DNA of 64,000 nucleotides from Prevotella sp. (GTDB taxonomy: Bacteria > Bacteroidota > Bacteroidia > Bacteroidales > Bacteroidaceae). Position numbers and translations under genes: made by a program. Position 1 is the stretch's first letter; each line of letters starts with the position of its first letter. The notes beneath the pieces were generated by a model. The model was not told the DNA's origin and did no database searches. It was given only the letters and a program-made list of their open reading frames with translations. This document shows positions 34,192-52,708 of the stretch, one piece after another. The stretch spans positions 40,716 to 104,715 of the forward strand of contig JAFTQG010000025.1 in the NCBI GenBank assembly GCA_017462915.1, in the 5' to 3' direction.

Positions 34192-34436
34192 AACAGATTC
34201 AGTTTTCGCATTTCACGTATAGCGATGTCTATAGCTTCGCCGATCTCCTTTGTGGAGTAGCCTATTTCACTGAAGGAGTCACGCCCTCTACGGAAACGCT
34301 GCAGACGGTGCAGCACTTTCAGGGCCTTCGAGCGTTGCATCTTTCTCTCCCGTAGCTCCTTCTGAATGTCCTCACATTCTGAGGCGGTTTTCAGAAAATC
34401 AGCTGCCTGCTGCAGTAGTGTGTTAGCGTTCTTCAT
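34188..34436 (-). CDS. helical hypothetical protein, 82 aa
   Basis: A long basic helix followed by a short acidic one. It overlaps both neighbours by 4 bases. No family was recognised. Confidence 0.5.
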   Translation of the reverse strand: MKNANTLLQQAADFLKTASECEDIQKELRERKMQRSKALKVLHRLQRFRRGRDSFSEIGYSTKEIGEAIDIAIREMRKLNLL

Positions 34437-35356
34437 ACCAAATCAGGCTCATTGCCGCCATAGCAAGCCATAGCGGGAAGTATGACATCGGATATTTGCT
34501 GGGCAGCTATCTTTGCATTGGGGTGGGGCTTCCCTGTCACTCCCTGCAAGCGTAGTCGCATGATAGCCCTCCACTCTCTCACGTTGTAGGTATAGCAGAC
34601 CCGGGTGGCAGTATCAAGCGGCAAGAAACCGCGAGCGTCCTGTGCCACCATGCCAAGCTTCAAGGCAAGCATATAGGCCCACTCACACACCTTCCAAGTG
34701 CAGCGGGCGAGCAGTCGTTTCTTCCACCCTCCTTCAGCGTACCAATGAGGCAGGCAAATTGTGATACCTCCTTTTTTGCCGAAGTTCACATACCGGGTTG
34801 ACTGTTCGGCTATATTGTTCGGTGATGTTCTGTTAAGCTCCCTGGAGGTGGATATTTGTGTTGTGACGCATACCGTGTAGCGGATGAGGGAAAGAGCCGT
34901 CTTATAGTTCAGCTCGTTAGCCCTTGCTACATAGTCGGTCAGTGTCACCTCGAAAGACTCCAGCATTTGCTTGATTCTCAGGTTATCCATGAGGTACTGC
35001 TGATTGGTGGAGATAAAGTAGATGCGGCCACCGCCCTTCTTCTTGTAGTATGCTATAGCAGCATAAGGGGTGGTCGATAACACGATGAGCAGCCAGTTAT
35101 AGATGTTCGTGCCTTGTGTGGTCGCCAAGATACCATGTTTTGCTTCGTCAGGGTCGGGCCTTGTCTCTATGATGAAATATCGTGAGGCATGGCGGAACAT
35201 CGATAGGTGTCCGCGTTGCATCAGCATTTCGCAGAAATCTTCTGCACTTTTCTGGCCACCCTCAGAGGCATAGCAGAGACGAGCAGCCTTTGCCACTTGC
35301 TCATGCCAGTCATCAGGGCACGGCCATAATTCTACGGATGGTTTGATTAGTTGCAT
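34433..35356 (-). CDS. thyX: flavin-dependent thymidylate synthase
   Basis: 307 aa. The ThyX signature is present as a variant: 'TSRELNRTSPNNIAEQSTRY' keeps the Ser, Asn/Glu and Ser-x-Arg-Tyr of RHRxxSxNExSxRY. 'RHASRYFI' and 'GHLSMFRH' earlier also match the FAD/dUMP fold. It makes dTMP from dUMP using methylene-tetrahydrofolate and FAD, raising dTTP for phage replication. It sits inside the tail operon between structural genes, an unusual place for a metabolic gene. Confidence 0.88.
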   Translation of the reverse strand: MQLIKPSVELWPCPDDWHEQVAKAARLCYASEGGQKSAEDFCEMLMQRGHLSMFRHASRYFIIETRPDPDEAKHGILATTQGTNIYNWLLIVLSTTPYAAIAYYKKKGGGRIYFISTNQQYLMDNLRIKQMLESFEVTLTDYVARANELNYKTALSLIRYTVCVTTQISTSRELNRTSPNNIAEQSTRYVNFGKKGGITICLPHWYAEGGWKKRLLARCTWKVCEWAYMLALKLGMVAQDARGFLPLDTATRVCYTYNVREWRAIMRLRLQGVTGKPHPNAKIAAQQISDVILPAMACYGGNEPDLV

Positions 35357-36214: not shown

Positions 36215-37591
36215 CTATTCAGTACGTCTTACCTGTACTGAAATCTGTGCACCAGGTGTTGCTTTCGAGCGTCTGAAGGTCATTGCCATCATCAGCATAT
36301 CAGCGTAGTCAGGGGATTTTCCACCAAGCAGCTTCTTCCACTCATCCTTCTTGATGACATCGAGCTTTCCAACGTCATTGTCGAGGTGGGCCTGTTTCAA
36401 TGCTCCCAGCTCATCGATGATTCTCTCTCGCTGATCCTCAGTGCAGATAACACGCATCTTCCTGCCATTCACCAACTCTGCCAGCTTGAAATAGCACTCA
36501 GCACGTTTGTTGGCATATCGTGGGTCAAGCGGTCTGTCACCACCATGGAACTCCTTAATACCTTCCAAGTAGCTTTCGAGGTATGCGCCCATACCATCGG
36601 CATCTACTATTGTCAACGAGCGAGGGATAGCGTCTCTTATCAGCAGGTTCTTCAAGTCGGTCTCTATCTCCCTACCAGTGGAATAGTCCTTGTCAATCTT
36701 GATGCGGCAGACGTTTCCCGTCCATGAGCCGGCAACGAAATGGTCATGCCCTTTCATCGCAAGGTCGGCAGAGCAGCTTTTACCTCCTACTTCCTCTATA
36801 TGCTCATTGTGGAACAAATCACGCAGAGCGTCATAGTCAAAGAGTGCTGCAGGGTCATCGTCATACTCGAAGTTACCATATACAAGACGCTGCACTGTCA
36901 CCTTATCAGAGCGCATGAGGTTTTCCAGATACGCAGGTTCGAGGTACGGGTTGTCTTTCGGTAGGGCCTTGATGAAGGCACGGAACTTTGCCAGCTTGCC
37001 TTCCCTGTCAGGCTTTACGAAGTCATTGTATATCCAGTTACGCTTCGGGTTACAGCTATACATCGCCTTGGGTATCGTCACCCATTCCGTTCCGTCTAAG
37101 TTCTTTCCTCTCAGCAGAGAGAAACGGCCTCTAAGCACTGAGACAGGTTTCTCATCAATCTCCTGTGCCTCATCGAGGAACATATCAGTCAGAGAGTAGG
37201 AACCGAAGCGGTCATAGTTCGGATCTTGTGGGTCCCAGTCGATGTAACGGAAGTAAATCATACTCCCATTAGGGAAGAAATACGAGTTACCCGGCTGTCC
37301 TGCGCTTGGTGCCGTCCTATAGTAGCCATAGTTGGTGAGTCCTAAATCAGCAAGCACCTCAAAGAACGTCACCATGGTAGTATCAGTAAGACGACTGAAC
37401 TCACGACGAGCAATGAAGCCGACACTGCCAGGCATGGTCATCCTGTTCAATATCTGCCATAGACAGCCTAACCAGCTCTTGCCTCCACGGGCTCCACCGC
37501 CGTATAGCACTTCGGTGATTCCATTCGTATGGTCAGTAAGTAGCTCATAAGCCTTTAGCTGCTTATCGTTAAGTTCAACCCTTATATCCAC
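36215..37591 (-). CDS. terL: terminase large subunit
   Basis: 458 aa, GTG start at 37591. Walker A GGGARGGKS (31-39), Walker B 'MFLDEAQE' with D140-E141. The C-terminal nuclease domain keeps 'CSADLAMKGHDHF' and 'IVDADGMG' acidic residues. It packages DNA into the prohead and cuts it at the end. Confidence 0.9.
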   Translation of the reverse strand: MDIRVELNDKQLKAYELLTDHTNGITEVLYGGGARGGKSWLGCLWQILNRMTMPGSVGFIARREFSRLTDTTMVTFFEVLADLGLTNYGYYRTAPSAGQPGNSYFFPNGSMIYFRYIDWDPQDPNYDRFGSYSLTDMFLDEAQEIDEKPVSVLRGRFSLLRGKNLDGTEWVTIPKAMYSCNPKRNWIYNDFVKPDREGKLAKFRAFIKALPKDNPYLEPAYLENLMRSDKVTVQRLVYGNFEYDDDPAALFDYDALRDLFHNEHIEEVGGKSCSADLAMKGHDHFVAGSWTGNVCRIKIDKDYSTGREIETDLKNLLIRDAIPRSLTIVDADGMGAYLESYLEGIKEFHGGDRPLDPRYANKRAECYFKLAELVNGRKMRVICTEDQRERIIDELGALKQAHLDNDVGKLDVIKKDEWKKLLGGKSPDYADMLMMAMTFRRSKATPGAQISVQVRRTE

Positions 37592-37597
37592 GTTCTA

Positions 37598-38110
37598 TTA
37601 TTCATTCTCAGTGTTCTGCTGCTCCTCCTTCTTCTTGTAGGGGGCAATGGTAATGTTAATTGGCTGAGTGGTATCGATATTGACATCTTGTCTGTCACTC
37701 CACTCTTTCGTTCTGTTCTTCAGCCAGAAAATCATTGCCGTAGTGTCGGGAGGTACATGCTTCTTCACTTTCTTAACGTATGTTGTCTGTGCAGCACCGC
37801 TGGGAGAGACCTTAACCTCTGTGACCGTTTCCTCAACATCATAGCCAAGGGCACGTTTATAGAGTGCAGAAACGACTTCATCATCAGCCACCTCGCTGCT
37901 TACCTTGATAAGCTCCACAAACTCAGGGTGGGCTTTCTTGATGCGTTTCAAGGTGGTAAGGCCACAGCCGAGCAAGTTCGCCAGTCCCTTTAGGTCAGCA
38001 CCTTTCTCACACGCCTGCTCTATCTCTTCCTCCTTGCCAGCAACATACTTATCATAGAGGGATATGTTCTCAGGGGGTCTGCCCATCCTTTTCTTCTCTT
38101 GCTCTTCCAT
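37598..38110 (-). CDS. terS: terminase small subunit
   Basis: 170 aa with an N-terminal helix-turn-helix ('ANLLGCGLTTLKRIKKAH' near residue 43-60), then 'ALYKRALGYDVEETVTE' and 'PPDTTAMIFWLKNR', the usual DNA-recognition and oligomerisation parts of phage small terminases. It ends at a basic tail and is immediately followed by terL. Confidence 0.8.
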   Translation of the reverse strand: MEEQEKKRMGRPPENISLYDKYVAGKEEEIEQACEKGADLKGLANLLGCGLTTLKRIKKAHPEFVELIKVSSEVADDEVVSALYKRALGYDVEETVTEVKVSPSGAAQTTYVKKVKKHVPPDTTAMIFWLKNRTKEWSDRQDVNIDTTQPINITIAPYKKKEEQQNTENE

Positions 38111-38113
38111 AGA

Positions 38114-38950
38114 TTACTCCTCTTTGGTTTCACTTTCAGCATTGGCGGCTTCTGCTGCAGCGGCGGTCTCAGCATCCTGCTTCGCGAGCTCATCCAAGTA
38201 TGCCTCACAGATGTCTATCATTTTGGAGAAAGCCACCGAGCGCGACTTTATCTGATAGCGCTTCTTCACCTCCTGAGTGAGCCGGATATAAGACTCAAAA
38301 GAGCCGACGATGATACTTGATTCCTCGCTAATCTCCATCTTCTCCAGTGTGTCGAGCACATTCTTGATGTTGTTGGCGCGGCTCTCAACAAACATGAACT
38401 TCATTTCGGTAATCTCGATGTCGCCGTCATTGATTGCAGGAGTGGAGATTTTATTCACGTCCACGAAGTCCAAACCGTTCAGTCCGGAGAACTCGCGCTT
38501 TTCCAAGCTCTTTATCTCCTCGTAGATTTCTTTCAGCATTTGGCGATCGTCCTTACCGACGAGTGCGTTATGGCTCAACTGATAGCCAAGCTGGGTGTCA
38601 TTGTCTGTCTCGTCGATATAGAGGATAAGAATATACTCCAGCTTTGCCTTGATAGCTGCTTTCAGACGGTGATTGCCGGACAGGAACAAAAACTTCCCAT
38701 CTTCGTTACGCTTCATTGCAAAAGGAAGCTGTGAAAGGAAGCCATCTTCGGCAATGTTCTCTACCAGTCTGTCGAAGATGTCCTTATCCATGTAGTGGGC
38801 ATTCCTCTCCAGCGGCACACAGTCCTCTGTCGGGCTAACATAAGCCAACTTGTAAGGGGCGATGAGTGCGTTTACATCGTCCAGTTTCTCTCTGATAAGG
38901 TTGATGTCCTTTGTGCCACCACCTTTTACTTCTTGTATTTCTTCAGCCAT
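38114..38950 (-). CDS. ParB/sulfiredoxin-fold protein
   Basis: 278 aa. 'FLSGNHRLKAAI' (near 89-100) is the ParB-type GxxR box, preceded by 'ISEDGFLSQLPFA'-like sequence. The C-terminus is Ala/Glu-rich coiled. ParB-fold proteins hydrolyse CTP or act as nucleases. It directly precedes terS, suggesting a role in DNA marking or packaging start. Its end and the upstream gene overlap by 25 bases. Confidence 0.75.
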   Translation of the reverse strand: MAEEIQEVKGGGTKDINLIREKLDDVNALIAPYKLAYVSPTEDCVPLERNAHYMDKDIFDRLVENIAEDGFLSQLPFAMKRNEDGKFLFLSGNHRLKAAIKAKLEYILILYIDETDNDTQLGYQLSHNALVGKDDRQMLKEIYEEIKSLEKREFSGLNGLDFVDVNKISTPAINDGDIEITEMKFMFVESRANNIKNVLDTLEKMEISEESSIIVGSFESYIRLTQEVKKRYQIKSRSVAFSKMIDICEAYLDELAKQDAETAAAAEAANAESETKEE

Positions 38951-40239
38951 GATTTATATATATTGGTTATTGATTCCTTGCCAAACTGACCGATATAGGT
39001 CAGCTTTCCTTCTTCTCTCTTTGCCAGCTTGAACACGCCACGGTATTTCATGCTGACAGGATTGTTTGTATAGACAGGTGCCTTGATTGCCTGGTAATAC
39101 TCGCCGTATTTCCGCGCTATCTCCATCTGTGTATCATGGGAAAGCTCACACATGATGAGCAGCTTGCTCAACTTCGCCTGATGGCTGTTCACTACAAAGT
39201 CTGCCAGACAGAATAGCTCATCGAGATTACTCTGCATCTTGGAGAACGAGCAGAAGCCAAAAGCCATGCCGTCTGCGAAGAATATCATGCCTAAGTCACC
39301 GCCATTGGTGTAGTTCACCTTGTTAGCCATGTAGAAGTCCTTGTAATAGTTCACGTTCTCCACCTCTACCAGTTTACACGTTATCTGAGTGTCCTCCTTG
39401 AACTCAAAGTCAGGGGGTATGGTGACGTACTTGCTCTTTAACGATTTCGTCCTTCGCTCCACAAAATACTTCTTGTGCTGCTTATCTTCTGCCGATGAAT
39501 ACAGATAGACAGAGTGCTTGCCTTTACCGAGGATAATCTTTGCTGTCAGGAACTCCTCGATGCTTTCATACGGTCTATCCGTATAGACGATGTTGCGGTC
39601 ATTGGTCAAGAGGTCAACGTGAATGCTCTCTGCCTCCTTGGGGTCAAAGAGGTTGTAGTGAGCATGCTCATACTCGAAGGTTTCCTCAACCGCCTTGTAT
39701 ATCTTCTCGTAGCCGCCTTTATACGTGGGCGGGAAAGCGATGCCTACGCCGCCAGTTCCCCTCTTGGCTTTTAGAAAGTCCACGAAGTCACCAAAGTAGA
39801 AGTCAGCAATCTTGAAGTTGAAGGCTCCCTTTCCCAGCTTCTCGCGTGTGCTGAGGTAGTAGGCCATGTGCTTTTCCAGGAATGCCTGCAGCATTTCCTC
39901 CTCGTAGATGTTCTTCTGTGAAGTGAAGCGGCTGATGCTCATGACGTACATCACTTCGATGAGCTTCTTGTATGGGTGTTCCTCCCATTGGTCGAAGATG
40001 CGAGCAAACTGCTCATTGGTGCAGGTCATGGGCGTGGTGTCCTTTCCCAGTACGATGTCAGCAGCAAGCTTTGTGTATAGGGACACGTCGTTTGAGTGCA
40101 CGGTGAATCCCATTCCGTGCATAATCTTATCGCAGTTGAAGTTGCCGGAGCAAGCCACATAGACCTCTTTGCAGTCCACTCTTGACATGATGTCTTGCAA
40201 GACGACCTTTACTTCCGGCGGTGTAGTTCCTGTGAACAT
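38926..40239 (-). CDS. putative antirestriction/base-modification protein (D12-like methyltransferase plus Mom-like region)
   Basis: 437 aa. The N-terminal half has a nucleotide-binding look: 'YVACSGNFNCDKIM', 'HSNDVSLYTKLAADI' and, near residue 170, 'IAFPPTYKGGYEKIY', similar to the catalytic PPY region of D12-class adenine methyltransferases. The C-terminal 140 residues ('LGMIFFADGMAFGFCSF', 'VSMKYRGVFKLAKREEG') have GNAT-like strands reminiscent of phage Mu Mom. Together they suggest an adenine-modifying enzyme that shields phage DNA. This is from pattern recall and needs a structure search. Confidence 0.55.
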   Translation of the reverse strand: MFTGTTPPEVKVVLQDIMSRVDCKEVYVACSGNFNCDKIMHGMGFTVHSNDVSLYTKLAADIVLGKDTTPMTCTNEQFARIFDQWEEHPYKKLIEVMYVMSISRFTSQKNIYEEEMLQAFLEKHMAYYLSTREKLGKGAFNFKIADFYFGDFVDFLKAKRGTGGVGIAFPPTYKGGYEKIYKAVEETFEYEHAHYNLFDPKEAESIHVDLLTNDRNIVYTDRPYESIEEFLTAKIILGKGKHSVYLYSSAEDKQHKKYFVERRTKSLKSKYVTIPPDFEFKEDTQITCKLVEVENVNYYKDFYMANKVNYTNGGDLGMIFFADGMAFGFCSFSKMQSNLDELFCLADFVVNSHQAKLSKLLIMCELSHDTQMEIARKYGEYYQAIKAPVYTNNPVSMKYRGVFKLAKREEGKLTYIGQFGKESITNIYKSWLKKYKK

Positions 40240-40308
40240 AATCTATTATCTTTATCTTGGGTTTATATTCTGTTTCATTTGGTGAGCTTGTGCTCTCGGC
40301 GCAAAGCA

Positions 40309-40342
40309 GCGCAGACAGAGGGTTTTATGTCTCTATCTGCGC
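40309..40342 (-). promoter_or_regulatory. intercistronic hairpin
   Basis: A 12-bp arm GCGCAGACAGAG pairs with 40331-40342 (one mismatch), 10-nt loop. It lies 70 bases before the ATG at 40239 and has no T-run, so it may be an RNA-processing or stability stem. Confidence 0.5.
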
Positions 40343-40354
40343 AAGTTGGTGGGG

Positions 40355-40747
40355 CTATTCAAAGAGGCTTAGCTCTTGAACAGTTTCCTTTGGTACGAAC
40401 TCCTCAATCTGCACTCCGTTGTTTCTGAGGTGTTCAGCCAACAGTTGGCGGTGACAGAACTCATCTGGCTTTTCATAGCAGCAGAGGGCTACGTCTCTTC
40501 CGTTCGATAGCTGCTTTACCTGGTTCAGGAAGTTTTGGATATTCAACCGTGCCAGAACTTCAGCTTTATAGCGACGAGTATATTCTTCATCGCCATTGGT
40601 CATCTTCAGAATGGAGTATGTGGGAGCCACCTCTTTTAGCGAGGGGCCATTATACCATCGTGGCGGGTACAGAGCAATGCCTATGACCATGATATTAGCT
40701 TTGGCCAAGGCTTTAGCGTTTGCAAAGTATGATGTATATAGTTTCAT
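40355..40747 (-). CDS. DUF488 family protein
   Basis: 130 aa. 'YTSYFANAKAL', 'ALYPPRWYNGPSLKEVAP', 'YTRRYKAEVLARL' and 'VALCCYEKPDEFCHRQLLAEHL' follow the DUF488 (YeaO) pattern. The conserved CxYEKxxxxCHR box suggests a catalytic or metal/nucleic-acid site. DUF488 genes often sit with DNA-modification or defence genes; the biochemical function is unknown. Confidence 0.75.
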   Translation of the reverse strand: MKLYTSYFANAKALAKANIMVIGIALYPPRWYNGPSLKEVAPTYSILKMTNGDEEYTRRYKAEVLARLNIQNFLNQVKQLSNGRDVALCCYEKPDEFCHRQLLAEHLRNNGVQIEEFVPKETVQELSLFE

Positions 40748-40756
40748 CTTTATGCT

Positions 40757-41257
40757 TTATTTATCGTGGTGGCAACATTCGCTCTCTTCTTGATTAGCAA
40801 AGAGGTCGTTGCAGACAAGGGAGTGCTTCTTTTTGAAAGCTGTCTTAGCCAGGTAGTTTGCAAACCACCAGTTTCTACAAGTGTTGTAGGGTTTCTCGTC
40901 TGCATGAGGCAATGACCAGTCGATGTAATCCGGAGTGATTGGCACTCTCTCAGCATTAACGATGCGACATTTGATGAAGTCATCGTCAATCTCGATCACC
41001 GACCCTTCTTTCTCTATGAAGGCAAGGTGCAGATTCTTTGGCCAGTTCCAGCCTTTCTCTACTCCACAGAGGTAATAGAACGGGGCCTTTTTCAGAGTCA
41101 TGTTTTCAGGCAGAGCCATCGTCCACCACTTCACGCGTTCATCATTGGTGCCGATGAGACTTTTCATGCAGTGATAGGCCAGGTTCACGTCTGTGATGTA
41201 TCGCAGCCAGAGGATGCGATTGACATTCTTGAATTGAGCGTATTCTATTGTCACCAT
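40757..41257 (-). CDS. hypothetical protein, 166 aa
   Basis: First gene behind the promoter at 41292-41323; start at ATG 41257. Aromatic-rich with many Trp and Cys and a C-terminal His/Cys tail ('CCHHDK'). No family was recognised; position suggests a part in the modification cluster. Confidence 0.5.
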   Translation of the reverse strand: MVTIEYAQFKNVNRILWLRYITDVNLAYHCMKSLIGTNDERVKWWTMALPENMTLKKAPFYYLCGVEKGWNWPKNLHLAFIEKEGSVIEIDDDFIKCRIVNAERVPITPDYIDWSLPHADEKPYNTCRNWWFANYLAKTAFKKKHSLVCNDLFANQEESECCHHDK

Positions 41258-41291
41258 AGTTTTCAAATTGTATTTATCTTATATTGCAGTA

Positions 41292-41323
41292 CAAAGGTAC
41301 AAAGAATTTATCAAATACGCAAG
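41292..41323 (-). promoter_or_regulatory. promoter with phage operator and leader
   Basis: CTTG at -33 (41320-41323), 20-bp spacer, TACCTTTG (41292-41299), minus strand; operator-like TTATCAAATACGCAAG present. It serves the genes from 41257 to the left, including terminase. Confidence 0.7.
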
Positions 41324-41334
41324 TTTTTGGGCGT

Positions 41335-42759
41335 TTATTTTAATAGTTTTTCCAAGACCGGGATAATATATTTATCCAAGTCGTACCTTTTACCTTCAGG
41401 GAGTGGCAGGGTGAACTCGAAGCGCACAGCATCCAATAGCTGACTGGGGGGGGCAGGAATTTCGTTTACTGCCACGACCTCAAAGGTGCCGCTCTTGATC
41501 TCCTTCTCTTTGTCCTTTAGCGTACCGTTGTCAAAGACATTGAAGGTATTGCCAATGTACTTCTTGTTACACTCGCAGATGTCAGCCATGCTGTGGTAAT
41601 GCTGGAAGTACCAAACACCGTTCATAAAGTTGGCTGTGAACTTATCCTCATCGAGGAAGGCAAACGTTCCCCTCTTGCGCTTGCTGTTCTCTGTCTGGTT
41701 GGAGGAAGTGGCACCATAGACGGTGTTTCCTGCCCAATAGATTGTACCACCGGGCTTGCAGAGTGCAGAACAGGTACGAAGGACAGCAGCCTCGGCTTCC
41801 AGTGAGTCCACGCTGTTGATTACATGGTCACAGACAACAACATCGTAGCGTCCGTATTTCTCCAGGTGTGCGCAAATCTCCTTGCAGTCACGCTCTACCT
41901 GCTCAGTCAGGATTTTGGAGCGTAACATCTTTGGCCCACAATAGAAGAACTCTATAGCGTCGATGTCATAGCCCTTGCCCTTCAGCATTTCGTAGTAGTT
42001 CTTACAGCCGGCACCGAAGTCAAGGATGCGGGTTGCCTTCGTCACGTTGGGAATGACCTGTGTCTCGTAGAGGACAGAAAGAGCGTGCTTGTCTGCTCCC
42101 TCTGGGTGTCTCTCTGGCTGTGCATAGCTCTGAATGTAGGTGTTACGCTCGATATGGTCATAGTTGAACTCACCATATTTCAGAGAGAAGTAATGCTCAG
42201 CCTTCTCAGCCATACCTTCAGGCAGTACATAGACGAGCAGAGGCATACGCAGCAGCTTGATCGTCTTGGCGTAGATAGCACTGATAATGATGTTTCCCTC
42301 ACTGTCAGCGACAGCATTGGCAAACTGGCCATACTTATTCACAAGCTCAGTGAGCTTGATGACCTTGTTTGCCTCACCGCCTTTGTTCACCATGATAAGG
42401 TCTTTTGGCTGTACGAGAGTGAAACCCACCGTACCCTTCGGCACGTTCACTTTGAGCAAAGGCTGATTCTCACTCACCTCAACCTCTGTGAAGTTGTGCA
42501 GTTGGTTGAAGCGTACCTCATCGTACACCGTTACGTTCTCCAGGCAGAAGGCAGGGCACTCAGTGATGCCGAGCAACTTCATCGTTTTTGTACGCTGGTG
42601 GCCAGCAAGGATGCGTTTGTCACGACCTCTTATCACAATGGCCTTGATAATGCCAAGCGTGGATAGAGAGGCTTTCAAGTTCTCCTGCGCGTCATCTTCC
42701 AACTTTCGGGGGTTGTAACCAGCAGGAGAGAGGGTGTCAATTTGCACCGTCTTAATCAT
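41335..42759 (-). CDS. ParB-fold domain fused to a class I SAM methyltransferase
   Basis: 474 aa from ATG 42759, one base after the upstream stop; 42786 is a longer alternative. Residues 1-90 form a ParB domain ('SPAGYNPRKL', 'AGHQRTK' at 52-58). About 90-180 are a linker domain. From about 240 a Rossmann methyltransferase starts with 'ILDFGAGCKN' (245-254), with acidic strand 'IDAIEF' and 'YDVVVCDHVINSV'. The fusion suggests a modification enzyme guided to DNA or a phage transcript by the ParB part. Substrate unknown. Confidence 0.8.
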   Translation of the reverse strand: MIKTVQIDTLSPAGYNPRKLEDDAQENLKASLSTLGIIKAIVIRGRDKRILAGHQRTKTMKLLGITECPAFCLENVTVYDEVRFNQLHNFTEVEVSENQPLLKVNVPKGTVGFTLVQPKDLIMVNKGGEANKVIKLTELVNKYGQFANAVADSEGNIIISAIYAKTIKLLRMPLLVYVLPEGMAEKAEHYFSLKYGEFNYDHIERNTYIQSYAQPERHPEGADKHALSVLYETQVIPNVTKATRILDFGAGCKNYYEMLKGKGYDIDAIEFFYCGPKMLRSKILTEQVERDCKEICAHLEKYGRYDVVVCDHVINSVDSLEAEAAVLRTCSALCKPGGTIYWAGNTVYGATSSNQTENSKRKRGTFAFLDEDKFTANFMNGVWYFQHYHSMADICECNKKYIGNTFNVFDNGTLKDKEKEIKSGTFEVVAVNEIPAPPSQLLDAVRFEFTLPLPEGKRYDLDKYIIPVLEKLLK

Positions 42760-42760
42760 G

Positions 42761-43378
42761 TTACTGATTTCGTTCATAATATTCATCTAATAAAAAGTTA
42801 ATAAATCCGTCCATTTTACCATGCTCTTTGCCGTATTCTTTAGCAACTCTCTGTAGCTCTTCACTCTCTGCTTTGCTCAGAACGATGTCATAGACACCGA
42901 ATTTGAAGCTCTCTACCTGCACGGTTGTATTCTTGTCACCACCAAAGCGGTCGGGGCCATCCTCGTTACTCTGGGGTATCTGTACGTCCCATATCTCAGG
43001 GTGCATTTCCACGCGCTCCATCGCCTCCTTCACCTTATCCATGTCGATATTGAAGTTCACGTTGGAGGTCACGTTATCAGCGAGAGCGAACTCACGGCCT
43101 TTCTTAGTGTCGATGTCGATGTCCGTTCTGCGCACGGCAACCAGCTTATCGCCAGTAACATCAATCACACGCACTTTCTTGATGCCGGCATTGATGGCAC
43201 CAGCAGCTGTCTTATTGCCTGCAATGATACGATTGTTCTTGTCAAGCACCACGGATCGACCACAGCCAAAGGTGGCAAGGGAGTAGTCAATCATCTTCTC
43301 ACCTTCGGCAGTTCCCTTATTGAAGTTAAGGTCGTCTTGAACCAAATCCTCAATGTTCAGTATCTCTTTTCCTTCCAT
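42761..43378 (-). CDS. ParB-like protein, paralogue 1
   Basis: 205 aa. 'GRSVVLDKNNRIIAGNKTA' (about 40-58) is a ParB box with GNKT in place of GxxR. It is closely similar to the neighbouring 210-aa gene over the first 120 residues ('DKNNRIIAGNK', 'AVRR.D.D.D..KGRE.ALADN'). A tandem duplication is likely. It may recognise a sequence or bind CTP; role unknown. Confidence 0.75.
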   Translation of the reverse strand: MEGKEILNIEDLVQDDLNFNKGTAEGEKMIDYSLATFGCGRSVVLDKNNRIIAGNKTAAGAINAGIKKVRVIDVTGDKLVAVRRTDIDIDTKKGREFALADNVTSNVNFNIDMDKVKEAMERVEMHPEIWDVQIPQSNEDGPDRFGGDKNTTVQVESFKFGVYDIVLSKAESEELQRVAKEYGKEHGKMDGFINFLLDEYYERNQ

Positions 43379-43381
43379 AGC

Positions 43382-44014
43382 TTATATACCGAGTAATTCA
43401 CCAACAAGACCGATGACCACCCCGTTTTCCTCGTAGTAGTCATCAGCGAATTTGTTTAGCCTGTCGTATTCCTCCTTGGTGGGGGTGATAGAGTAACCCT
43501 TGAAGCGAATGGGTGTAACATCAGCGTCCTTGCTTGCACGGCTGCTGGCAAGTTCCTTTCGCTCCTTAGCTCTTGCTTCCCTACGTTCCTTGGCAGTCTG
43601 CCGTTCAATGTACTTGTCTATGTCCTTGATGCCCCATGCCTCAGTGTCCATGTGCAGCTCATCGACACAGCGGCGAATCTCGTTATAATCGAGGTCCATG
43701 TTAGTCTTGGCAGTCATATTATCTGCCAAAGCAAGCTCCCTGCCTTTCCTTGAATCGAGGTCAAGGTCAACACGACGAACTGCTATCAGCTCATCGCCTT
43801 CTGAGTCAACGACTATCACATCATCTATACCGTGGGCCTCGGCGGTCTTTGCAGATTTGTTTCCGGCAATGATGCGGTTATTCTTATCTATCAAGACAGA
43901 CCGGGCAGCACCAAAGTTTTCAAAGGAACGGTTGAGCAGCACCTGTCCCTTCTCAGTGCCCTGGTTGAAATTCCGGTCATCTTGAATAAGTTCCTGTATC
44001 TTGATTTCTTCCAT
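43382..44014 (-). CDS. ParB-like protein, paralogue 2
   Basis: 210 aa. Shares 'ARSVLIDKNNRIIAGNKSA' with paralogue 1, followed by a basic helix (RRxxRAKERKE) absent there. Four ParB-fold proteins in 6 kb is unusual. Confidence 0.75.
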   Translation of the reverse strand: MEEIKIQELIQDDRNFNQGTEKGQVLLNRSFENFGAARSVLIDKNNRIIAGNKSAKTAEAHGIDDVIVVDSEGDELIAVRRVDLDLDSRKGRELALADNMTAKTNMDLDYNEIRRCVDELHMDTEAWGIKDIDKYIERQTAKERREARAKERKELASSRASKDADVTPIRFKGYSITPTKEEYDRLNKFADDYYEENGVVIGLVGELLGI

Positions 44015-44017
44015 AAT

Positions 44018-44794
44018 TTACTGATTTACGGCCATTGGTAACGGCTGAACGAATTTATTGATGAAGTATTGGCAACCCTTCTGCGTTACCTTGGTAGTTC
44101 TGGTAACGTGCTGCTCCCCATTCTTTCCAGAGCGAGTACCCTTTGTTACCTCAAAGAGCCCCATTTCAAGGTATCGCTGCATCGGCATATTCCTGTCAGA
44201 GCCAAAGCTGCAGAGGTAGCCTTCATTGCGTAGCTGCTCGAACAATCGCACCTCTCCAGTCTCGTAACCGTTCTGGCAGAGAATCTTTGCGAGTTCACCG
44301 ATGAGTACAGAATCAGGAGAAGAAAGCACGGCATTTGCAAAGGCTACCTTCGGCTTCTGTTCCTCCAACTGCTCCTGCTGTTGCTTGTTTTCAATGGCAA
44401 GCTGCTCCTTCTCCTCCTCAGCCTGTACTACCATAAGGGCAAGCTGCTTACGAGTCAGCTGCTCTATAGAGTAAGAACCAGTCTTTCTTGTTGACGGCAA
44501 CACTTCAGATGTTATCCACTTCTTGAATTGTTTGGCAGTCGGAAGCTTTGACCCAAGAACAAGGGCATACATTCCTGACTCATTCACAAAAGATAGCTGC
44601 TGAATACCTCCTTTCGTAGGGGTGTCGCGTTTTGCGACGTCCCCTTCATCAACATGCTTAGACACTGCATCACGACCATTTGAATAGCCAAGAGCCTTGC
44701 ATAAATCCATGGCACAAAACTCAGGATTGTCTTGTGTTCCTGTAGTTCGGATCTGACCAAACTGAGGATGATTGAAAATCTGAATATCACTCAT
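44018..44794 (-). CDS. phage antirepressor (Bro-N plus KilAC/ANT domain)
   Basis: 258 aa. 'GSKLPTAKQFKKWITSEVLPSTRKTGSY' is the Bro-N hallmark at about 80-108. A Gln/Glu helical linker follows, then 'FANAVLSSPDSVLIGELAKILCQNG' begins the KilAC DNA-binding part (about 150-255). It would oppose the prophage repressor or regulate the operon. It lies among ParB genes. Confidence 0.85.
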   Translation of the reverse strand: MSDIQIFNHPQFGQIRTTGTQDNPEFCAMDLCKALGYSNGRDAVSKHVDEGDVAKRDTPTKGGIQQLSFVNESGMYALVLGSKLPTAKQFKKWITSEVLPSTRKTGSYSIEQLTRKQLALMVVQAEEEKEQLAIENKQQQEQLEEQKPKVAFANAVLSSPDSVLIGELAKILCQNGYETGEVRLFEQLRNEGYLCSFGSDRNMPMQRYLEMGLFEVTKGTRSGKNGEQHVTRTTKVTQKGCQYFINKFVQPLPMAVNQ

Positions 44795-44798
44795 ACTG

Positions 44799-45500
44799 TT
44801 ATCGTTTTATTGCTATAAGTCCACAGAAATTCAGATAGCGCCAATAAGTTTCGACAACACGGAATCCAGCAGCAGAGAGGAATTGTCTGTTTGCAGCCTC
44901 GGTGACTGGCACCAAAGTTCCCTCCAGACTCTTTCGTTTCTCCGCTATTTGCTTCTCAGTGTAGCTATTCTCTCTCTTGATGGCGTAATATTCATCCTTC
45001 ATTGCCTCATCTATAACAGCGGAATAACCCAGCACCTTCTCTACAAGCAAGAAAGCACCGCCAGGCTGCAGGCTGTCATAGACATTCTGAATGATGCGCT
45101 GGCGGTACTCTATAGGTGTAAACTGAATAGTGAGGCAGGAAAGGATAAGACTGCACTGCGCTTCTGGCAGTGAGCTTGTGATGTCTCTTTTCTCGATGCT
45201 GACATTGGGATAGCCGGAATACTTCGCCCGACAAATAGACAGCATGGGGTCGCTTGTATCGCACAGATAGAAGTGGCAATCCGCATTGCCACCGATGAGA
45301 CCTTCCACACCCTTGCCAGTGGAGCACCCTAAATCCATGACGTTGCTTTCGCGTGTGATGAACTTGCGACCTAACCGGGTGGTAAGGTCACGCATCGTGT
45401 CATAGTCAGGGATTGAGCGACTTATCATGTCATCAAAGACACGCGCTACTTCCGCATTAAACTCCCACTTGCCATCGGGTATGTAGTCATCGTGCATCAT
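44799..45500 (-). CDS. CmoA-like carboxy-SAM synthase homologue
   Basis: 233 aa from the ATG at 45500, which overlaps the upstream stop. It follows CmoA closely: 'VFDDMISRSIPDYDTM', SAM motif 'VMDLGCSTGKG' (54-64), 'IQFTPIEYRQRIIQNVYDSLQPGGAFLLVEK', 'AIKRENSYTEKQIAEKRKSLEG' with both KR pairs, and 'YLNFCGLIAIK'. CmoA converts SAM and prephenate to carboxy-SAM for tRNA cmo5U34. No CmoB is nearby, so another acceptor, perhaps DNA, is possible. Confidence 0.7.
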   Translation of the reverse strand: MMHDDYIPDGKWEFNAEVARVFDDMISRSIPDYDTMRDLTTRLGRKFITRESNVMDLGCSTGKGVEGLIGGNADCHFYLCDTSDPMLSICRAKYSGYPNVSIEKRDITSSLPEAQCSLILSCLTIQFTPIEYRQRIIQNVYDSLQPGGAFLLVEKVLGYSAVIDEAMKDEYYAIKRENSYTEKQIAEKRKSLEGTLVPVTEAANRQFLSAAGFRVVETYWRYLNFCGLIAIKR

Positions 45501-45901
45501 GCTTTCGCGCTTTGTAACTTTACAATATCCATTCCGAAACAAGTCAGCAGCGTTTCAAGCTGCTTCACCGTTATTCCACGTTTACCATTGAAATAGCTAC
45601 TCAGCACAGAGCGGTTGATACCCGTCTCAGCGGATAGGTCCAGGATTTTCTTGTTCTGCTTTGAAATGCTGTCGCGCATAAGCAAGTGAATCATGTTGGC
45701 AGGCACGCTGCCTTCTTCACCCTCACGCGCTGCCGTCACCTTCAGGTACAGCATAATCTTCATTAGATGCTTGTACGGAATAGACCGCTTGCCGTGGAGG
45801 AAAGCGTTCAGGTTTTGAACGGTCAAGCCTAACAGAGTGCAGAGCATTGTCTGGTTCACTCCGCGCTCGTGCATGTGCTCTTCTATCTTCTCTCTTATCA
45901 T
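45497..45901 (-). CDS. tandem XRE-type helix-turn-helix regulator, 134 aa
   Basis: Two HTH domains in one chain: 'GVNQTMLCTLLGLTVQNLNAFL' (about 14-35) and 'ETGINRSVLSSYF' (about 90-103), each followed by a similar 'GKR' turn. It likely binds as a pseudo-dimer. The palindrome TTTGATAA-N5-TTATCAAA at 45956-45976 stands next to its promoter, so it could autoregulate. First gene of the ParB/methyltransferase operon. Confidence 0.75.
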   Translation of the reverse strand: MIREKIEEHMHERGVNQTMLCTLLGLTVQNLNAFLHGKRSIPYKHLMKIMLYLKVTAAREGEEGSVPANMIHLLMRDSISKQNKKILDLSAETGINRSVLSSYFNGKRGITVKQLETLLTCFGMDIVKLQSAKA

Positions 45902-46907: not shown

Positions 46908-47075
46908 CTATTTTGATTTTGATTGCTTGTAATATCTACCTCCGCACTCACCACTGGGTAAGATGTCATAGGGGCCGATGGCCTTGCCTGAGTTTACGTC
47001 AAGGGCAAGTGCAAAGAGTGCGCAATCCAAACGGATATTGCACTCCACATTACAGCAGATAAGCGGTTTATCCAT
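46908..47075 (-). CDS. small Cys-rich protein, 55 aa
   Basis: ATG at 47075 overlaps the end of the acyl carrier protein gene. 'CCNVECNIRLDC' and a later C suggest a metal site. Function unknown. Confidence 0.5.
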   Translation of the reverse strand: MDKPLICCNVECNIRLDCALFALALDVNSGKAIGPYDILPSGECGGRYYKQSKSK

Positions 47076-47340
47076 GTTTCTCCTTATAGTGTTTCTCCAT
47101 AAGGTCAACAATGTCCTTCACCGTTGTTTCGTCTGTAGTCAGGCATTCGCATTCCGCATCGCTTACACTGATGTCAAGCCTATGCTCAATATCCATCACT
47201 ACCTGCACCATGTCAAGACTGTCACCACCGAGGTCATTCCGGAAGTTATCTTCCAGGGAAACGCTCACCTTAGAATCGATAGGTGAAATCACTTTTTCCG
47301 TGATGTCAAGCACCACTTTCTCAATTTCTTCTCTGTTCAT
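47068..47340 (-). CDS. acpP: acyl carrier protein
   Basis: 90 aa from ATG 47340. 'FRNDLGGDSLDMVQVVMDIE' carries the DSL phosphopantetheine motif with Ser41; helices II and III and the acidic surface fit ACPs. It would carry acyl groups as thioesters after modification by the host holo-ACP synthase. A free ACP in a phage is uncommon. It is next to a radical SAM gene, so the pair may build or attach a modified group. Confidence 0.85.
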   Translation of the reverse strand: MNREEIEKVVLDITEKVISPIDSKVSVSLEDNFRNDLGGDSLDMVQVVMDIEHRLDISVSDAECECLTTDETTVKDIVDLMEKHYKEKHG

Positions 47341-47344
47341 ATCG

Positions 47345-48202
47345 TTAAGTAAATAGGTTGTAATCCATTCCGACAAAGTTCTCACTACACTGGAGAGCCT
47401 TTTCAAAGTTATCTGCAGCCATATTCTTCTGCACATAGTCATGGATAGACTTCTTCCAGTACACCTTAAATCCCTCCTTCTCACATAGCCCTGTCACACG
47501 ACCGATGAAGAAAGCGCACTCATCAGCATTATAATAGTCATTCTTTACTCCAGACCGCAAGCCAATCTTGAACAGGTCACAGAACTTTGCAGATTGCTCG
47601 ATCATCCGGAAAGAACTGTTGAAGTCTATGATTGGCTCAATGCTTGCGAAAGTCCTAAAGCCATGCTCTTTTAGCCGCTTCATTGAGTCAATACGTTCTG
47701 CATTTGGGTCTGCATAAGGCTCCATGTCATCCCTGCCTGTCAACGTAAAACCGATAGCCAGCAATGGGCGTTTCTCCTTCTCGATGTCATTCAGTATGAT
47801 GTTTGCAGACAAAGGCACATTCGCGCATTTGGTCAGAATCTTTACCGGAATGCCACACTGCAGGGCAAACTTAGCTGCTTCCAATGTCAGCATACACGTT
47901 TTCCTCAGCATGGGGTCTGTTGAGAAGGAGAAGAAAATGCCCGTCTTTCTCAGGTGGTCAATATGCTTCTCGCACTCATGCTTGAATACAAAGAGTGCAT
48001 CGTTCTCGTCTGCAAAGCATTTCTTCAGCGAGACCTCTGTCTTTCCCAAAGTCTTACTAAGGACTCCACGCTTCAGGTAGCAGTACAGGCAATCGTGAGG
48101 GCAACCGTTATAGAAGTTGCAGCCGACAGCGGCATACTCCCTTGCAGCACCTTTTGGCGTATAAAGGGCCTTGCCGTTCAGGATAATTTCTTTCGTTTCC
48201 AT
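47345..48202 (-). CDS. radical SAM protein (spore-photoproduct-lyase-like)
   Basis: 285 aa. 'GCNFYNGCPHDCLYCYLKR' contains Cys34, Cys38 and Cys41, the CxxxCxxC cluster for a 4Fe-4S centre. 'FFSFSTDPM' and 'ILTKCANVPL' lie on the expected barrel strands. The family of SplB-like proteins includes DNA-lesion lyases and others. Direct neighbour of the ACP gene with a 4-base gap. Substrate unknown. Confidence 0.85.
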   Translation of the reverse strand: METKEIILNGKALYTPKGAAREYAAVGCNFYNGCPHDCLYCYLKRGVLSKTLGKTEVSLKKCFADENDALFVFKHECEKHIDHLRKTGIFFSFSTDPMLRKTCMLTLEAAKFALQCGIPVKILTKCANVPLSANIILNDIEKEKRPLLAIGFTLTGRDDMEPYADPNAERIDSMKRLKEHGFRTFASIEPIIDFNSSFRMIEQSAKFCDLFKIGLRSGVKNDYYNADECAFFIGRVTGLCEKEGFKVYWKKSIHDYVQKNMAADNFEKALQCSENFVGMDYNLFT

Positions 48203-49047: not shown

Positions 49048-49863
49048 TTATTTTTTGTTTCTCAGCAGTTTGAATCGTTCAGCAAGCTTTTCGACACCCA
49101 TTTTCTCACGCTCCAGCATATCGAGATATTCATCTTCGTGGTTGAGTTCCAATGCTCTTAGTCCTGCTTTATCCAAGGTTTTTTCATCAAACAGCTTGTC
49201 ACAGAAAGCTTCGTATGCTTTGACTGATGCAAAGTTATTCGTAGGACTCAGCCCATTCTTCTTATAGTTGATGATATTGTCTGTTAGCATACCGAAGTTG
49301 ACGTCTGCCTCCGCAATACGAGCAGGAAGATAGTCGTTTCTCATGTCAATACCAAATCGCTCTGAATACAGGTCGAAGTAGCAATCAAAGAGGTCTGCAG
49401 CAAGATGAATGAGCGTATAAGCCATCTGGAGCTGAGCCTTGAAGCGCGGATCGTCCTGCCTTTTTGACTCAAAGTAAGCGCAGAATGTAACATAGAGACT
49501 TGTCATTTCGCGCTTTAGCTGCCGCTCCATCTGTGTGCTGTAGTCAGACAAAATGTTTGGCATGTTACCATCTGCCTTCTTTATCCATTCGTTCACCTTT
49601 TCAAAGCAGCTCTTTGTGCCATTAAGCCACACCTTATACTTGTGGTGAATCATATTTCTGTCATCGAAAACGTCATACGGTTCCCAGAAATAATGCTCAG
49701 CAATAAGGACAGGAATAACTACTTGTGACCAAAACCTGGCACGGCAATCTTTCCTCACTGCCTGTGCTTGCTGAAATGTCAGTTTCTCTTGCGGTTTTTT
49801 GGGCTGGTTGTTCTGAGGTGCCAGCTTTGCCGACTGGTGGAAATATACTACTCTCTTTGTCAT
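49048..49863 (-). CDS. hypothetical protein, 271 aa, linked to the PRTRC cassette
   Basis: Mainly helical with a basic N-terminus and a 'FWEPYDVFDDRNM' stretch. It overlaps the ThiF gene by 4 bases, so it is probably coexpressed. No family was recognised; it may be an accessory or divergent PRTRC protein. Confidence 0.5.
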   Translation of the reverse strand: MTKRVVYFHQSAKLAPQNNQPKKPQEKLTFQQAQAVRKDCRARFWSQVVIPVLIAEHYFWEPYDVFDDRNMIHHKYKVWLNGTKSCFEKVNEWIKKADGNMPNILSDYSTQMERQLKREMTSLYVTFCAYFESKRQDDPRFKAQLQMAYTLIHLAADLFDCYFDLYSERFGIDMRNDYLPARIAEADVNFGMLTDNIINYKKNGLSPTNNFASVKAYEAFCDKLFDEKTLDKAGLRALELNHEDEYLDMLEREKMGVEKLAERFKLLRNKK

Positions 49864-50633
49864 AGGTTAATCGGATTTACTTTCATATTTCGCAGGTTCA
49901 GGAATAAACCATTAAACTCTATCCCTCCACTGGTAATGAGATTCCAAAGGAGATTGCAGCCAAGATTTGCCAGCGTTGAGTTAATGAACAAGTCTTGCTT
50001 CTCCAGTGCTTCTGCAAGTGAGCAGCTGGGGCCGCTATCCTTCTCGTTCACAGATAAGAGGTCAAACAGCTCGTCGATGCAAGGCAGCTTTCCAACTGGC
50101 TTCGACTCTTTTGACTTTGGCTGTTCCAGCTCTTTTATGGTGCCAAGCACCACCTGGCCAGTGTCAGCAGTATTGCCGAAATCTATCCAGTAGAAGAAAT
50201 CCTTTTCATCGTCACCTCCTATATTGTGGTATGTGCGCAGGTTCTTTCCTATTTTTATACGCGCCTTTGCATTATCCACACAACTGATGATGATATTGGC
50301 CGTATCATCGGCTCCTTTGCTCGGGTATCTGCATGGTTTTGAATCCCAGCCAAGGCCAAAGAATCGGTTGACTCTGGTCACCAATACGTCTGCCTTGTTG
50401 CAACCTATCTCCATGGGAGTAAAGAGTTGTCGGCCAAGGTTTGCCGGGGTGACAATATCATCGTCAAACACCGTGACATGAAGCCCCTTGTGGCCAAGTG
50501 TCCGCAAAGAGCAGTCAATACGAGCCAAGGCTGTCACTACCTGACTACCTGTACCTCCAGCACCGATAACGTACACCGTTAGCGGGTGATAAGGATTCAG
50601 GAGGTAATTGTGCGTAAAATGTACTTTTTTCAT
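49860..50633 (-). CDS. PRTRC system ThiF family protein
   Basis: 257 aa. 'VYVIGAGGTGSQVV' (20-33) is the E1-like nucleotide-binding loop; 'FDDDIVTPANLGRQLFTPMEIGCNKAD' matches the adenylation region with the catalytic Arg. No catalytic Cys box is evident. ThiF/E1-like enzymes adenylate the C-terminus of a ubiquitin-like protein. It is part of the PRTRC cassette together with the B, C, E and F-like genes. Confidence 0.85.
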   Translation of the reverse strand: MKKVHFTHNYLLNPYHPLTVYVIGAGGTGSQVVTALARIDCSLRTLGHKGLHVTVFDDDIVTPANLGRQLFTPMEIGCNKADVLVTRVNRFFGLGWDSKPCRYPSKGADDTANIIISCVDNAKARIKIGKNLRTYHNIGGDDEKDFFYWIDFGNTADTGQVVLGTIKELEQPKSKESKPVGKLPCIDELFDLLSVNEKDSGPSCSLAEALEKQDLFINSTLANLGCNLLWNLITSGGIEFNGLFLNLRNMKVNPINL

Positions 50634-52457: not shown

Positions 52458-52479
52458 AATTTCTCAGATTCTTTGTCGT

Positions 52480-52689
52480 TCATCCCTTTGTGCCTACGGT
52501 TGTCTTGAACTCATAGACAGCCTCGTCATTCTCCACCTTGGGGCCATGCACATTGCTCGTCGTAAGCTCAGGATATTGATTACTATAGAAGTTCATCACT
52601 TCCTCTGGTGACATCTTAGGGTCAGGGTCAGAAAGCTTCTGGCCGTTGTGCTTAAACACGCGCTTGTATTTACTAATTCTCAGTGGCAT
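52480..52689 (-). CDS. PRTRC system protein C
   Basis: 69 aa. 'RVFKHNGQKLSDPDPKMSPEEVM' and the ending 'YEFKTTVGTKG' match PRTRC C very well. This small family resembles ubiquitin-like folds and ends in Gly, as an E1 substrate would. Confidence 0.9.
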   Translation of the reverse strand: MPLRISKYKRVFKHNGQKLSDPDPKMSPEEVMNFYSNQYPELTTSNVHGPKVENDEAVYEFKTTVGTKG

Positions 52690-52708
52690 AATCTTTTTGT
52701 TTTAAGGG

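What the first reader, a model, noticed from the sequence alone, without database searches (positions are those of the whole stretch)
38114..45500. A CmoA-like carboxy-SAM synthase among four ParB-fold proteins and two methyltransferase-type enzymes
Seen: a CmoA homologue (44799-45500), two ParB paralogues, a ParB-methyltransferase fusion (41335-42759), a DUF488 protein, a D12/Mom-like protein (38926-40239), and another ParB protein next to terS. Known: CmoA makes carboxy-SAM for a tRNA carboxymethylation; phage Mu Mom puts a carbamoylmethyl group on adenine N6; ParB-fold proteins sit with DNA-modification modules. Inference: the phage may use carboxy-SAM to carboxymethylate its DNA as anti-restriction or packaging mark. 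No CmoB is visible, so a tRNA role would depend on the host.
Basis: partly seen in the sequence, partly recalled or inferred. Interest (0 to 1): 0.85.

Follow-up and report, generated by a model that had tools for sequence, protein, structure and literature searches.

The report
Phage carboxy-SAM synthase beside ParB methyltransferase
A phage of Bacteroidota-type bacteria carries an enzyme that very probably makes an unusual cofactor for putting carboxymethyl groups on DNA, and comparing its relatives points to a widespread phage gene set in which that enzyme is paired with a new kind of ParB-linked transferase instead of the one known partner.

Summary
In detail: window 38114-45500 encodes a CmoA homologue, two ParB-like proteins, a ParB-methyltransferase fusion (P0003), DUF488, a DAM-like+GNAT protein and a fourth ParB-like protein before terS/terL. 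CmoA keeps E. coli Arg199, Glu164 and Asp117; dN/dS is about 0.07. The window's own assembly has no CmoB match.

The general idea was proven in December 2025 (Yang et al., PMC12783734): phage CmoA feeds CmoX, a cytosine-C5 carboxymethyltransferase. No CmoX was found on this phage contig.

New here: phage-type CmoA has a second partner. A clade of ParB-methyltransferase fusions ("B-type") has CmoA beside it in 79 of the 80 best loci of a search by the fusion alone, 74 with a HAD-like gene. Of 182 CmoA loci, 86 have a ParB-methyltransferase, 38 a C5-methyltransferase, none both. The contexts interleave on the CmoA tree, as if partners were swapped. B-type carries an Arg and a Lys, 80 of 80 each, that the other clade has in 2 and 0 of 52.

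The window's own fusion belongs to the other clade (A-type) and lacks both. The window is a hybrid: CmoA, an A-type module, and an independent DAM-GNAT/ParB cassette. Which enzyme uses the cofactor here is unsettled.

The parts
44799..45500 (-). phage-type CmoA homologue (P0001), 233 aa, predicted carboxy-SAM synthase
   Evidence: E. coli D117, E164, R199 align with D106, E154, R189
44018..44794 (-). BRO-N/KilAC antirepressor, interposed; probably not part of the pathway
43382..44014 (-). ParB-like protein 1
   Evidence: phrog_620 E 5.5e-15
42761..43378 (-). ParB-like protein 2
   Evidence: phrog_620 E 2.3e-12
41335..42786 (-). A-type ParB-methyltransferase fusion (P0003), 483 aa; candidate transferase
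   Evidence: (phrog_5475 E 1.1e-82)
40757..41266 (-). P0007 family protein (TTG start; an ATG lies at 41257), partner of A-type fusions
   Evidence: found near 47 of 80 A-type loci; alignment A5
40355..40747 (-). DUF488-N3a protein
   Evidence: Pfam E 1.1e-12; a relative in 33 of 83 DAM-GNAT loci
38926..40239 (-). DAM-like + GNAT-like fusion (P0002), 437 aa; separate cassette
38114..38950 (-). ParB-like protein of the DAM-GNAT cassette
   Evidence: a relative in 81 of 83 DAM-GNAT loci
36215..38110 (-). terminase small (37598-38110) and large (36215-37591) subunit region downstream; location marker only
   Evidence: position and TerL conservation in relatives; annotated terminase genes follow in FP_Brigit and BS-TP3

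Best explanation
This is a phage carboxy-SAM (Cx-SAM) system of a hybrid kind. Step 1 (homology and residues shown, activity inferred, about 0.9): CmoA converts SAM to Cx-SAM. Step 2 (inferred, about 0.8): the Cx-SAM serves a phage-encoded transferase acting on DNA, not tRNA. Step 3, for the kindred phages (inferred from strong comparative evidence, about 0.7): where no CmoX is present, the transferase is a ParB-methyltransferase fusion of the CmoA-bound 'B-type' clade, in the order ParB, fusion, HAD-like, CmoA, usually just before the terminase genes. Step 4, for this window (inferred, about 0.5): the slot is filled by the A-type fusion P0003, which takes Cx-SAM from CmoA to carboxymethylate phage DNA, guided by its ParB domain and the two ParB-like proteins; the DAM-GNAT/ParB cassette beside it is an independent modification module. 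The acceptor atom is unknown: the methyltransferase domain is UbiG-like and shows neither the [DNS]PP[YFW] motif of amino-methyltransferases nor a C5-methyltransferase match.
For: CmoA: full-length match and conserved D106/E154/R189. No CmoX or CmoY by HMM in the window or in C58:717-40715; the only C5-methyltransferase of the assembly is on contig C55 and has GNAVP where CmoX has Arg-350. No CmoB. B-type fusion found without using CmoA as query (its seed rows did come from CmoA loci): CmoA in 79 of 80 loci, same strand, median gap 413 bases, HAD-like gene in 74 of 80; 21 of 21 clusters at 80% identity. 182 CmoA loci: 86 with ParB-methyltransferase, 38 with C5-methyltransferase, 0 with both, 58 with neither; at 90% clustering 26, 31, 0, 27 of 84, chance of no overlap 2.8e-7 without correction for kinship. 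On the CmoA tree the B label needs 15 changes and the CmoX label 16, at least 6 and 8 forced by well-supported branches; the window's CmoA lies in a supported set of five with A-, B- and CmoX-type contexts. B-type has an invariant Arg and Lys (80 of 80 each; A-type 2 and 0 of 52), in keeping with the Arg of CmoX and Lys/Arg of CmoB that hold the carboxylate. A-type with CmoA occurs in three separate lineages (window, L006, L106), with no CmoX or B-type found in the records of L006, L106, L213 and L002; L106 has HAD, ParB, A-type fusion and CmoA in one run. CmoA dN/dS 0.07. The same phage contig carries MetK and an MTA/SAH nucleosidase, conserved in its sibling.
Against: P0003 lacks the Arg and Lys of the CmoA-bound clade (E332, Y393), and no basic residue is gained in common by the three CmoA-linked A-types. 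49 of 52 A-type representatives have no CmoA within 8 kb (many on short contigs), and three genomes with A-type fusions have no full CmoA match: A-type can work without it. The linkage of B-type was measured on the best 80 of 290 relatives. One B-type locus (L363) has no CmoA found. Six of the 80 B-type loci also hold a weak C5-methyltransferase match. 9 of 39 CmoA-neighbouring C5-methyltransferases (the 38, plus S-B43) show another residue than Arg in the CmoX motif and 6 could not be read. CmoA falls below NCBI's equivalog cut-off. No structure model could be made.
Confidence: 0.5

Rival explanations
1. CmoA here is a survivor of an ancestral B-type system. The B-type fusion was replaced by an A-type module that uses plain SAM, and CmoA now feeds another enzyme of the phage (the N6/N4 methyltransferase at 20350-21099, the DUF4942 protein at 15454-17025, or the DAM-GNAT protein).
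For: P0003 lacks the B-type Arg and Lys; A-type mostly occurs without CmoA; the window's CmoA groups with those of B- and CmoX-type loci; other methyltransferase-type genes exist in the window.
Against: None of these other enzymes is seen as a regular CmoA partner; DAM-GNAT has CmoA in 2 of 83 loci, both of the window's lineage. Three separate A-type/CmoA pairings are unlikely if A-type had no use for it.
Confidence: 0.3
2. CmoA works with host CmoB on wobble uridine of tRNA.
For: That is the function of bacterial CmoA; PHROGs label this family tRNA methyltransferase.
Against: No CmoB at E <= 0.001 in the window's assembly, which looks like Bacteroidota (10 SusD matches) and is listed as 99.97% complete; the contig might be misbinned, as no 16S was found to check. 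CmoA linkage to ParB-methyltransferases or C5-methyltransferases in relatives fits DNA better.
Confidence: 0.05
3. The phage uses CmoA to draw down SAM, against SAM-dependent host defence, rather than to make a cofactor.
For: Raised as a possibility for phage CmoA by Yang et al..
Against: The same contig encodes a SAM synthetase and an SAH-removing nucleosidase, which fits heavy use of SAM-type cofactors; CmoA is tied to transferase genes.
Confidence: 0.07
4. The ParB-methyltransferase fusions are methylases or scaffold proteins unrelated to Cx-SAM, and the linkage reflects a shared place before the terminase genes.
For: Both gene types tend to lie before terS/terL (a TerL match within 6 kb in 51 of 61 loci with room).
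Against: A-type fusions also lie near terminase genes in several loci but lack CmoA in 76 of 80 loci; CmoX and B-type exclude one another.
Confidence: 0.15

Closest known systems
CmoA-CmoX-CmoY system of Synechococcus phage S-B43 (Yang et al. 2025, PMC12783734)
   Same: phage-encoded CmoA homologue (31% identical), proposed DNA target, clustered modification genes
   Different: no CmoX and no CmoY on this contig; instead ParB-methyltransferase fusions with a UbiG-like domain, and in most B-type relatives a HAD-like gene
CmoA/CmoB tRNA wobble pathway of E. coli
   Same: CmoA homology with D117, E164, R199 kept
   Different: no CmoB; Asn132 replaced by Cys122; phage operon without tRNA genes in the window
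phrog_5475 (function unknown; ParB-methyltransferase fusions)
   Same: P0003 and B-type fusions both match it
phage Mu Mom
   Same: a GNAT-like domain in a phage DNA-modification setting
   Different: no detectable similarity; P0002 has an added DAM-like domain and a ParB partner

Membership tests
CmoA, Cx-SAM synthase | full-length homology to E. coli CmoA | tested here: met
   residues 10-232 to 4gek, E 2e-30
CmoA, Cx-SAM synthase | Arg199 that salt-bridges the carboxylate (PMC3663124, passages) | tested here: met
   aligns with R189; numbering offset of 14 for 4gek checked with D117. Note that active SpCmoA has Glu at that column
CmoA, Cx-SAM synthase | NCBI equivalog cut-off for bacterial CmoA (TIGR00740) | tested here: not met
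   150.4 of 193.3 bits; so it is filed as a phage-type CmoA homologue, not as the bacterial equivalog
CmoA, Cx-SAM synthase | makes Cx-SAM from SAM and prephenate | not testable with these tools
   needs an enzyme assay
CmoA-CmoX-CmoY system | C5-methyltransferase CmoX with Arg-350 encoded by the phage | tested here: not met
   no match in window, L047, L048; sole PF00145 match of the assembly is on contig C55
CmoA-CmoX-CmoY system | asparagine-synthetase-like ligase CmoY | tested here: not met
   no HMM match in window, L047, L048; CmoY is not in every CmoX locus either (10 of 38)
B-type ParB-methyltransferase/HAD/CmoA module (defined here) | CmoA plus a fusion of the B clade with its Arg and Lys | tested here: not met
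   P0003 is A-type with Glu and Tyr; CmoA itself is present
B-type ParB-methyltransferase/HAD/CmoA module (defined here) | HAD-like gene (phrog_32036) | tested here: not met
   no HMM match in window, L047, L048; present in 74 of 80 B-type loci
CmoA/CmoB tRNA pathway | CmoB in the genome | tested here: not met
   PF08003, 0 matches at E <= 0.001
Mom | homology to Mu Mom | tested here: not met
   hhalign probability 0.1 for A6 and for the P0007 family; Mom was a single sequence, so this is a weak test

The most novel reading that the evidence does not exclude
Phages have a second class of carboxymethyltransferase that draws on CmoA's Cx-SAM: ParB-methyltransferase fusions with a UbiG-like domain, which act on DNA at an acceptor other than cytosine C5 and so create modified bases not yet known, with a HAD-like helper. 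The window's phage is a hybrid in which an A-type fusion has been brought under CmoA.
Probability: 0.5. Interest if true: 0.85.

Novelty: new variant of a known kind. Interest (0 to 1): 0.7.

Why it matters
Carboxymethylation of DNA was shown to be natural only in December 2025, for one enzyme type and one base, and its discoverers wrote that a preliminary search gave no adenine-N6 or cytosine-N4 candidates tied to CmoA. A second enzyme clade locked to CmoA in phages and prophages of many phyla (Bacteroidota, Verrucomicrobiota, Bacillota, Chloroflexota, Cyanobacteriota, Lentisphaerota by record title) would widen the known chemistry of phage DNA, supply new tools for placing carboxyl handles on DNA, and give clear proteins and residues (the B-type Arg and Lys) to test.

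Tried and rejected
Adenine-N6/Mom reading: P0002 has Pfam DAM-like and GNAT-like domains, but its family is not tied to CmoA (2 of 83 loci) and no Mom similarity appeared. tRNA reading: rejected for want of CmoB. P0003 as a CmoX: no C5-methyltransferase match. Search for a basic residue gained jointly by the three CmoA-linked A-type fusions: none. Search for solved relatives of P0002 (none at E 1) and of the P0007 family (one weak match, to a synthetic nanobody, E 0.34). CmoB was not among the solved structures matched by the B-type profile; the fusion profile of both types matched ParB/Noc and UbiG. Rfam: no match in the window. Looking for host kin by 16S: none in the assembly. DUF488 in DNA-modification papers: no paper found. 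The labels A-type and B-type are mine.

Sampling limits: CmoA loci come from three searches, the last two keeping the best 80 of 476 and of 173 by likeness to the window's CmoA; A-type loci are the best 80 of 219, B-type the best 80 of 290, and 7 of those 80 were already held. So 86 against 38 is not a prevalence. Of the 58 CmoA loci with neither partner, 39 (L254-L292) have CmoA only 36-39% identical to the window's, a good part of them in Dyadobacter and Chitinophagaceae records; the rest include short contigs, and some may hide a third partner. The CmoA tree's bootstrap had not settled and two long branches meet. Tree rows of fusions were limited to frames of 400 residues or more.
Full report
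What is there. The window is the last 64,000 bases of contig C58 (104,715 bases) of an unnamed 2.9 Mb assembly. All genes of the finding lie on the minus strand. Read in the direction of transcription they are: a double helix-turn-helix gene (45497-45901), CmoA (44799-45500, overlapping it by four bases), a BRO/KilAC antirepressor (44018-44794), two ParB-like genes (43382-44014, 42761-43378), a ParB-methyltransferase fusion P0003 (41335-42786), a 169-residue protein P0007 (40757-41266), DUF488 (40355-40747), a DAM-like plus GNAT-like protein P0002 (38926-40239), a fourth ParB-like gene (38114-38950), then the small and large terminase genes.

The CmoA homologue. P0001 matches E. coli CmoA over residues 10-232 (4gek, E 2e-30). 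Counting along that alignment with an offset of 14 for 4gek, E. coli Asp117 (adenine), Glu164 and Arg199 (salt bridge to the carboxylate; PMC3663124, passages seen) fall on D106, E154 and R189; Asn132 falls on C122 and is not kept. The offset is my count and agrees at Asp117. The test has a limit: the active SpCmoA of phage S-B43 has Glu, not Arg, at the Arg199 column, so the residue is neither sufficient nor strictly needed. NCBI's bacterial CmoA model gives E 6.3e-44 but stays under its cut-off. CmoA is under strong purifying selection against the sibling phages L002 and L213 (dN/dS 0.076 and 0.073, with synonymous change of 0.62 per site).

What was already known. Yang et al. (PMC12783734; I read parts 1-3 of 8 of the text and some passages) showed that Synechococcus phage S-B43 makes Cx-SAM with its own CmoA, carboxymethylates cytosine C5 with CmoX, whose Arg-350 holds the carboxylate, and adds glycine with CmoY. 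They saw ParB-domain proteins in many CmoX contigs, and wrote that a preliminary search gave no adenine-N6 or cytosine-N4 candidates.

The partner is missing here. HMMs built from CmoX and CmoY found nothing in the window or in C58:717-40715. The only C5-methyltransferase of the assembly is on contig C55 and has GNAVP at the CmoX Arg site. CmoB is not found. The assembly has 10 SusD matches, so it is of Bacteroidota type, and no 16S; binning of the contig was not otherwise checked, but the closest sibling phage contig (L213) is in a Bacteroidaceae MAG.

A second CmoA partner. I collected 182 CmoA loci in three searches and scanned their frames within 10.5 kb of CmoA with HMMs. 86 hold a ParB-methyltransferase fusion (4 of them the window's lineage and L006), 78 of these with a small HAD-like gene; 38 hold a C5-methyltransferase; none holds both; 58 hold neither. 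Of 39 CmoA-neighbouring C5-methyltransferases (these 38 loci and S-B43), a pattern found the CmoX Arg in 24, another residue in 9, and could not read 6. A tree of 68 fusion representatives has two fully supported halves: 16 'B-type', each with CmoA nearby, and 52 'A-type', of which 3 have CmoA (window, L006, L106). Because the B-type rows had come in through CmoA, I searched viral contigs with a B-type alignment alone: of the best 80 of 290 relatives, 79 have CmoA on the same strand at a median gap of 413 bases, and 74 have the HAD-like gene; 21 of 21 clusters at 80% identity have CmoA. The exception is L363. Six of the 80 also have a weak C5-methyltransferase match, none with a readable CmoX Arg. 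The order is fusion, HAD, CmoA in 64, HAD, fusion, CmoA in 9, fusion, CmoA in 6, fusion, HAD in 1; where there is 2.5 kb of room after CmoA, 51 of 61 have a TerL match within 6 kb.

Partner swapping. On a tree of 87 CmoA representatives the B-type label needs 15 changes and the CmoX label 16, with 6 and 8 forced by well-supported branches (bootstrap not settled, two long branches). CmoX-linked and fusion-linked CmoAs are thus mixed, for example L016 with L008 and L145 with L337. The window's CmoA sits in a supported set of five with L006 (A-type), L214 (B-type), L029 (too short to tell) and L151 (CmoX). The simplest reading is that fusion and CmoX do the same job for CmoA. B-type fusions have an Arg after the NSVPF motif and a Lys in the PK.QK motif in 80 of 80 each; A-type has Arg in 2 and Lys in 0 of 52. 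CmoX and CmoB both use basic residues for the carboxylate. That these two do so here is inference. B-type also has a second ParB-like box, NGIGR, in 79 of 80; A-type in 0 of 52 (the likeness to a ParB box is my reading).

The window itself. P0003 is A-type: Glu and Tyr stand where B-type has Arg and Lys. A-type fusions mostly come with a P0007-type gene (47 of 80 loci) and without CmoA (4 of 80 have it), and three genomes with A-type fusions have no full CmoA match. So A-type probably uses SAM in most phages. Yet A-type and CmoA meet in three separate branches, with no CmoX and no B-type fusion found in the records of L006, L106, L213 and L002, and in L106 the run is HAD, ParB, A-type fusion, CmoA, as in a B-type module. 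I give even odds that P0003 takes Cx-SAM. P0002 is a poor candidate: its family has a ParB relative in 81 of 83 loci, DUF488 in 33, CmoA in 2, both of the window's lineage. It is an independent cassette.

Supply of cofactor. The same contig encodes MetK (C58:12631-13920, 515 bits, cut-off 309) and an MTA/SAH nucleosidase (C58:11966-12634, 175 bits, cut-off 169), both present in the sibling contig of L213 (91% and 80% identical). Faecalibacterium phage FP_Brigit, with a P0002 relative, also has MetK. This fits heavy use of SAM-type cofactors.

Mechanism. Shown: gene content, homology, residue conservation, linkage, exclusion, swapping. Inferred: CmoA makes Cx-SAM; a fusion takes the carboxymethyl group to DNA; ParB parts bind or position DNA. 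Unknown: the acceptor. The methyltransferase domain is nearest to UbiG, an O-methyltransferase (4kdr, E 6.9e-8), and I saw neither an [DNS]PP[YFW] motif nor a C5-methyltransferase match in it, so it need not be cytosine C5 or an exocyclic amine. Structure prediction was not accepting jobs.

Novelty. In the full-text library, searches for carboxy-S-adenosyl or CmoA with phage terms, for carboxymethyltransferase with phage, for ParB with carboxymethyl, and for Cx-SAM with phage brought up only Yang et al. as relevant in what was listed; paywalled papers and preprints outside PMC were not searched. I rate it a new variant of a known kind.

Noticed in passing
34433-35356 (-): A ThyX-family gene (Thy1 E 4.5e-22, below NCBI's thyX cut-off) lies among the genes downstream of the terminase.
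   Followed up: no
47068-48202 (-): An acyl carrier protein gene overlaps the end of a radical SAM gene; relatives of both also occur together in L001, L003, L005 and L018.
   Followed up: partly
49860-53338 (-): PRTRC-type genes: ThiF, Prok-E2_D and PRTRC_E.
   Followed up: no
L048:11250-13204 (contig C58:11966-13920, outside the window): Phage-borne SAM synthetase beside an MTA/SAH nucleosidase, conserved in the sibling contig L403.
   Followed up: partly
40757-41266 (-) and alignment A5: P0007 family: invariant HC, CGV-type Cys, N.H and CRN motifs, no Pfam or PHROG match for P0007, next to 47 of 80 A-type fusions.
   Followed up: partly
L024:6530-13760: A viral contig with CmoA among radical SAM-like genes and an FtsJ-like methyltransferase but no CmoX or fusion found: possibly a third partner type.
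   Followed up: no
15454-17025 and 20350-21099 (-): A DUF4942 protein with a methyltransferase-small match, and an N6/N4 DNA methyltransferase, far from CmoA.
   Followed up: no
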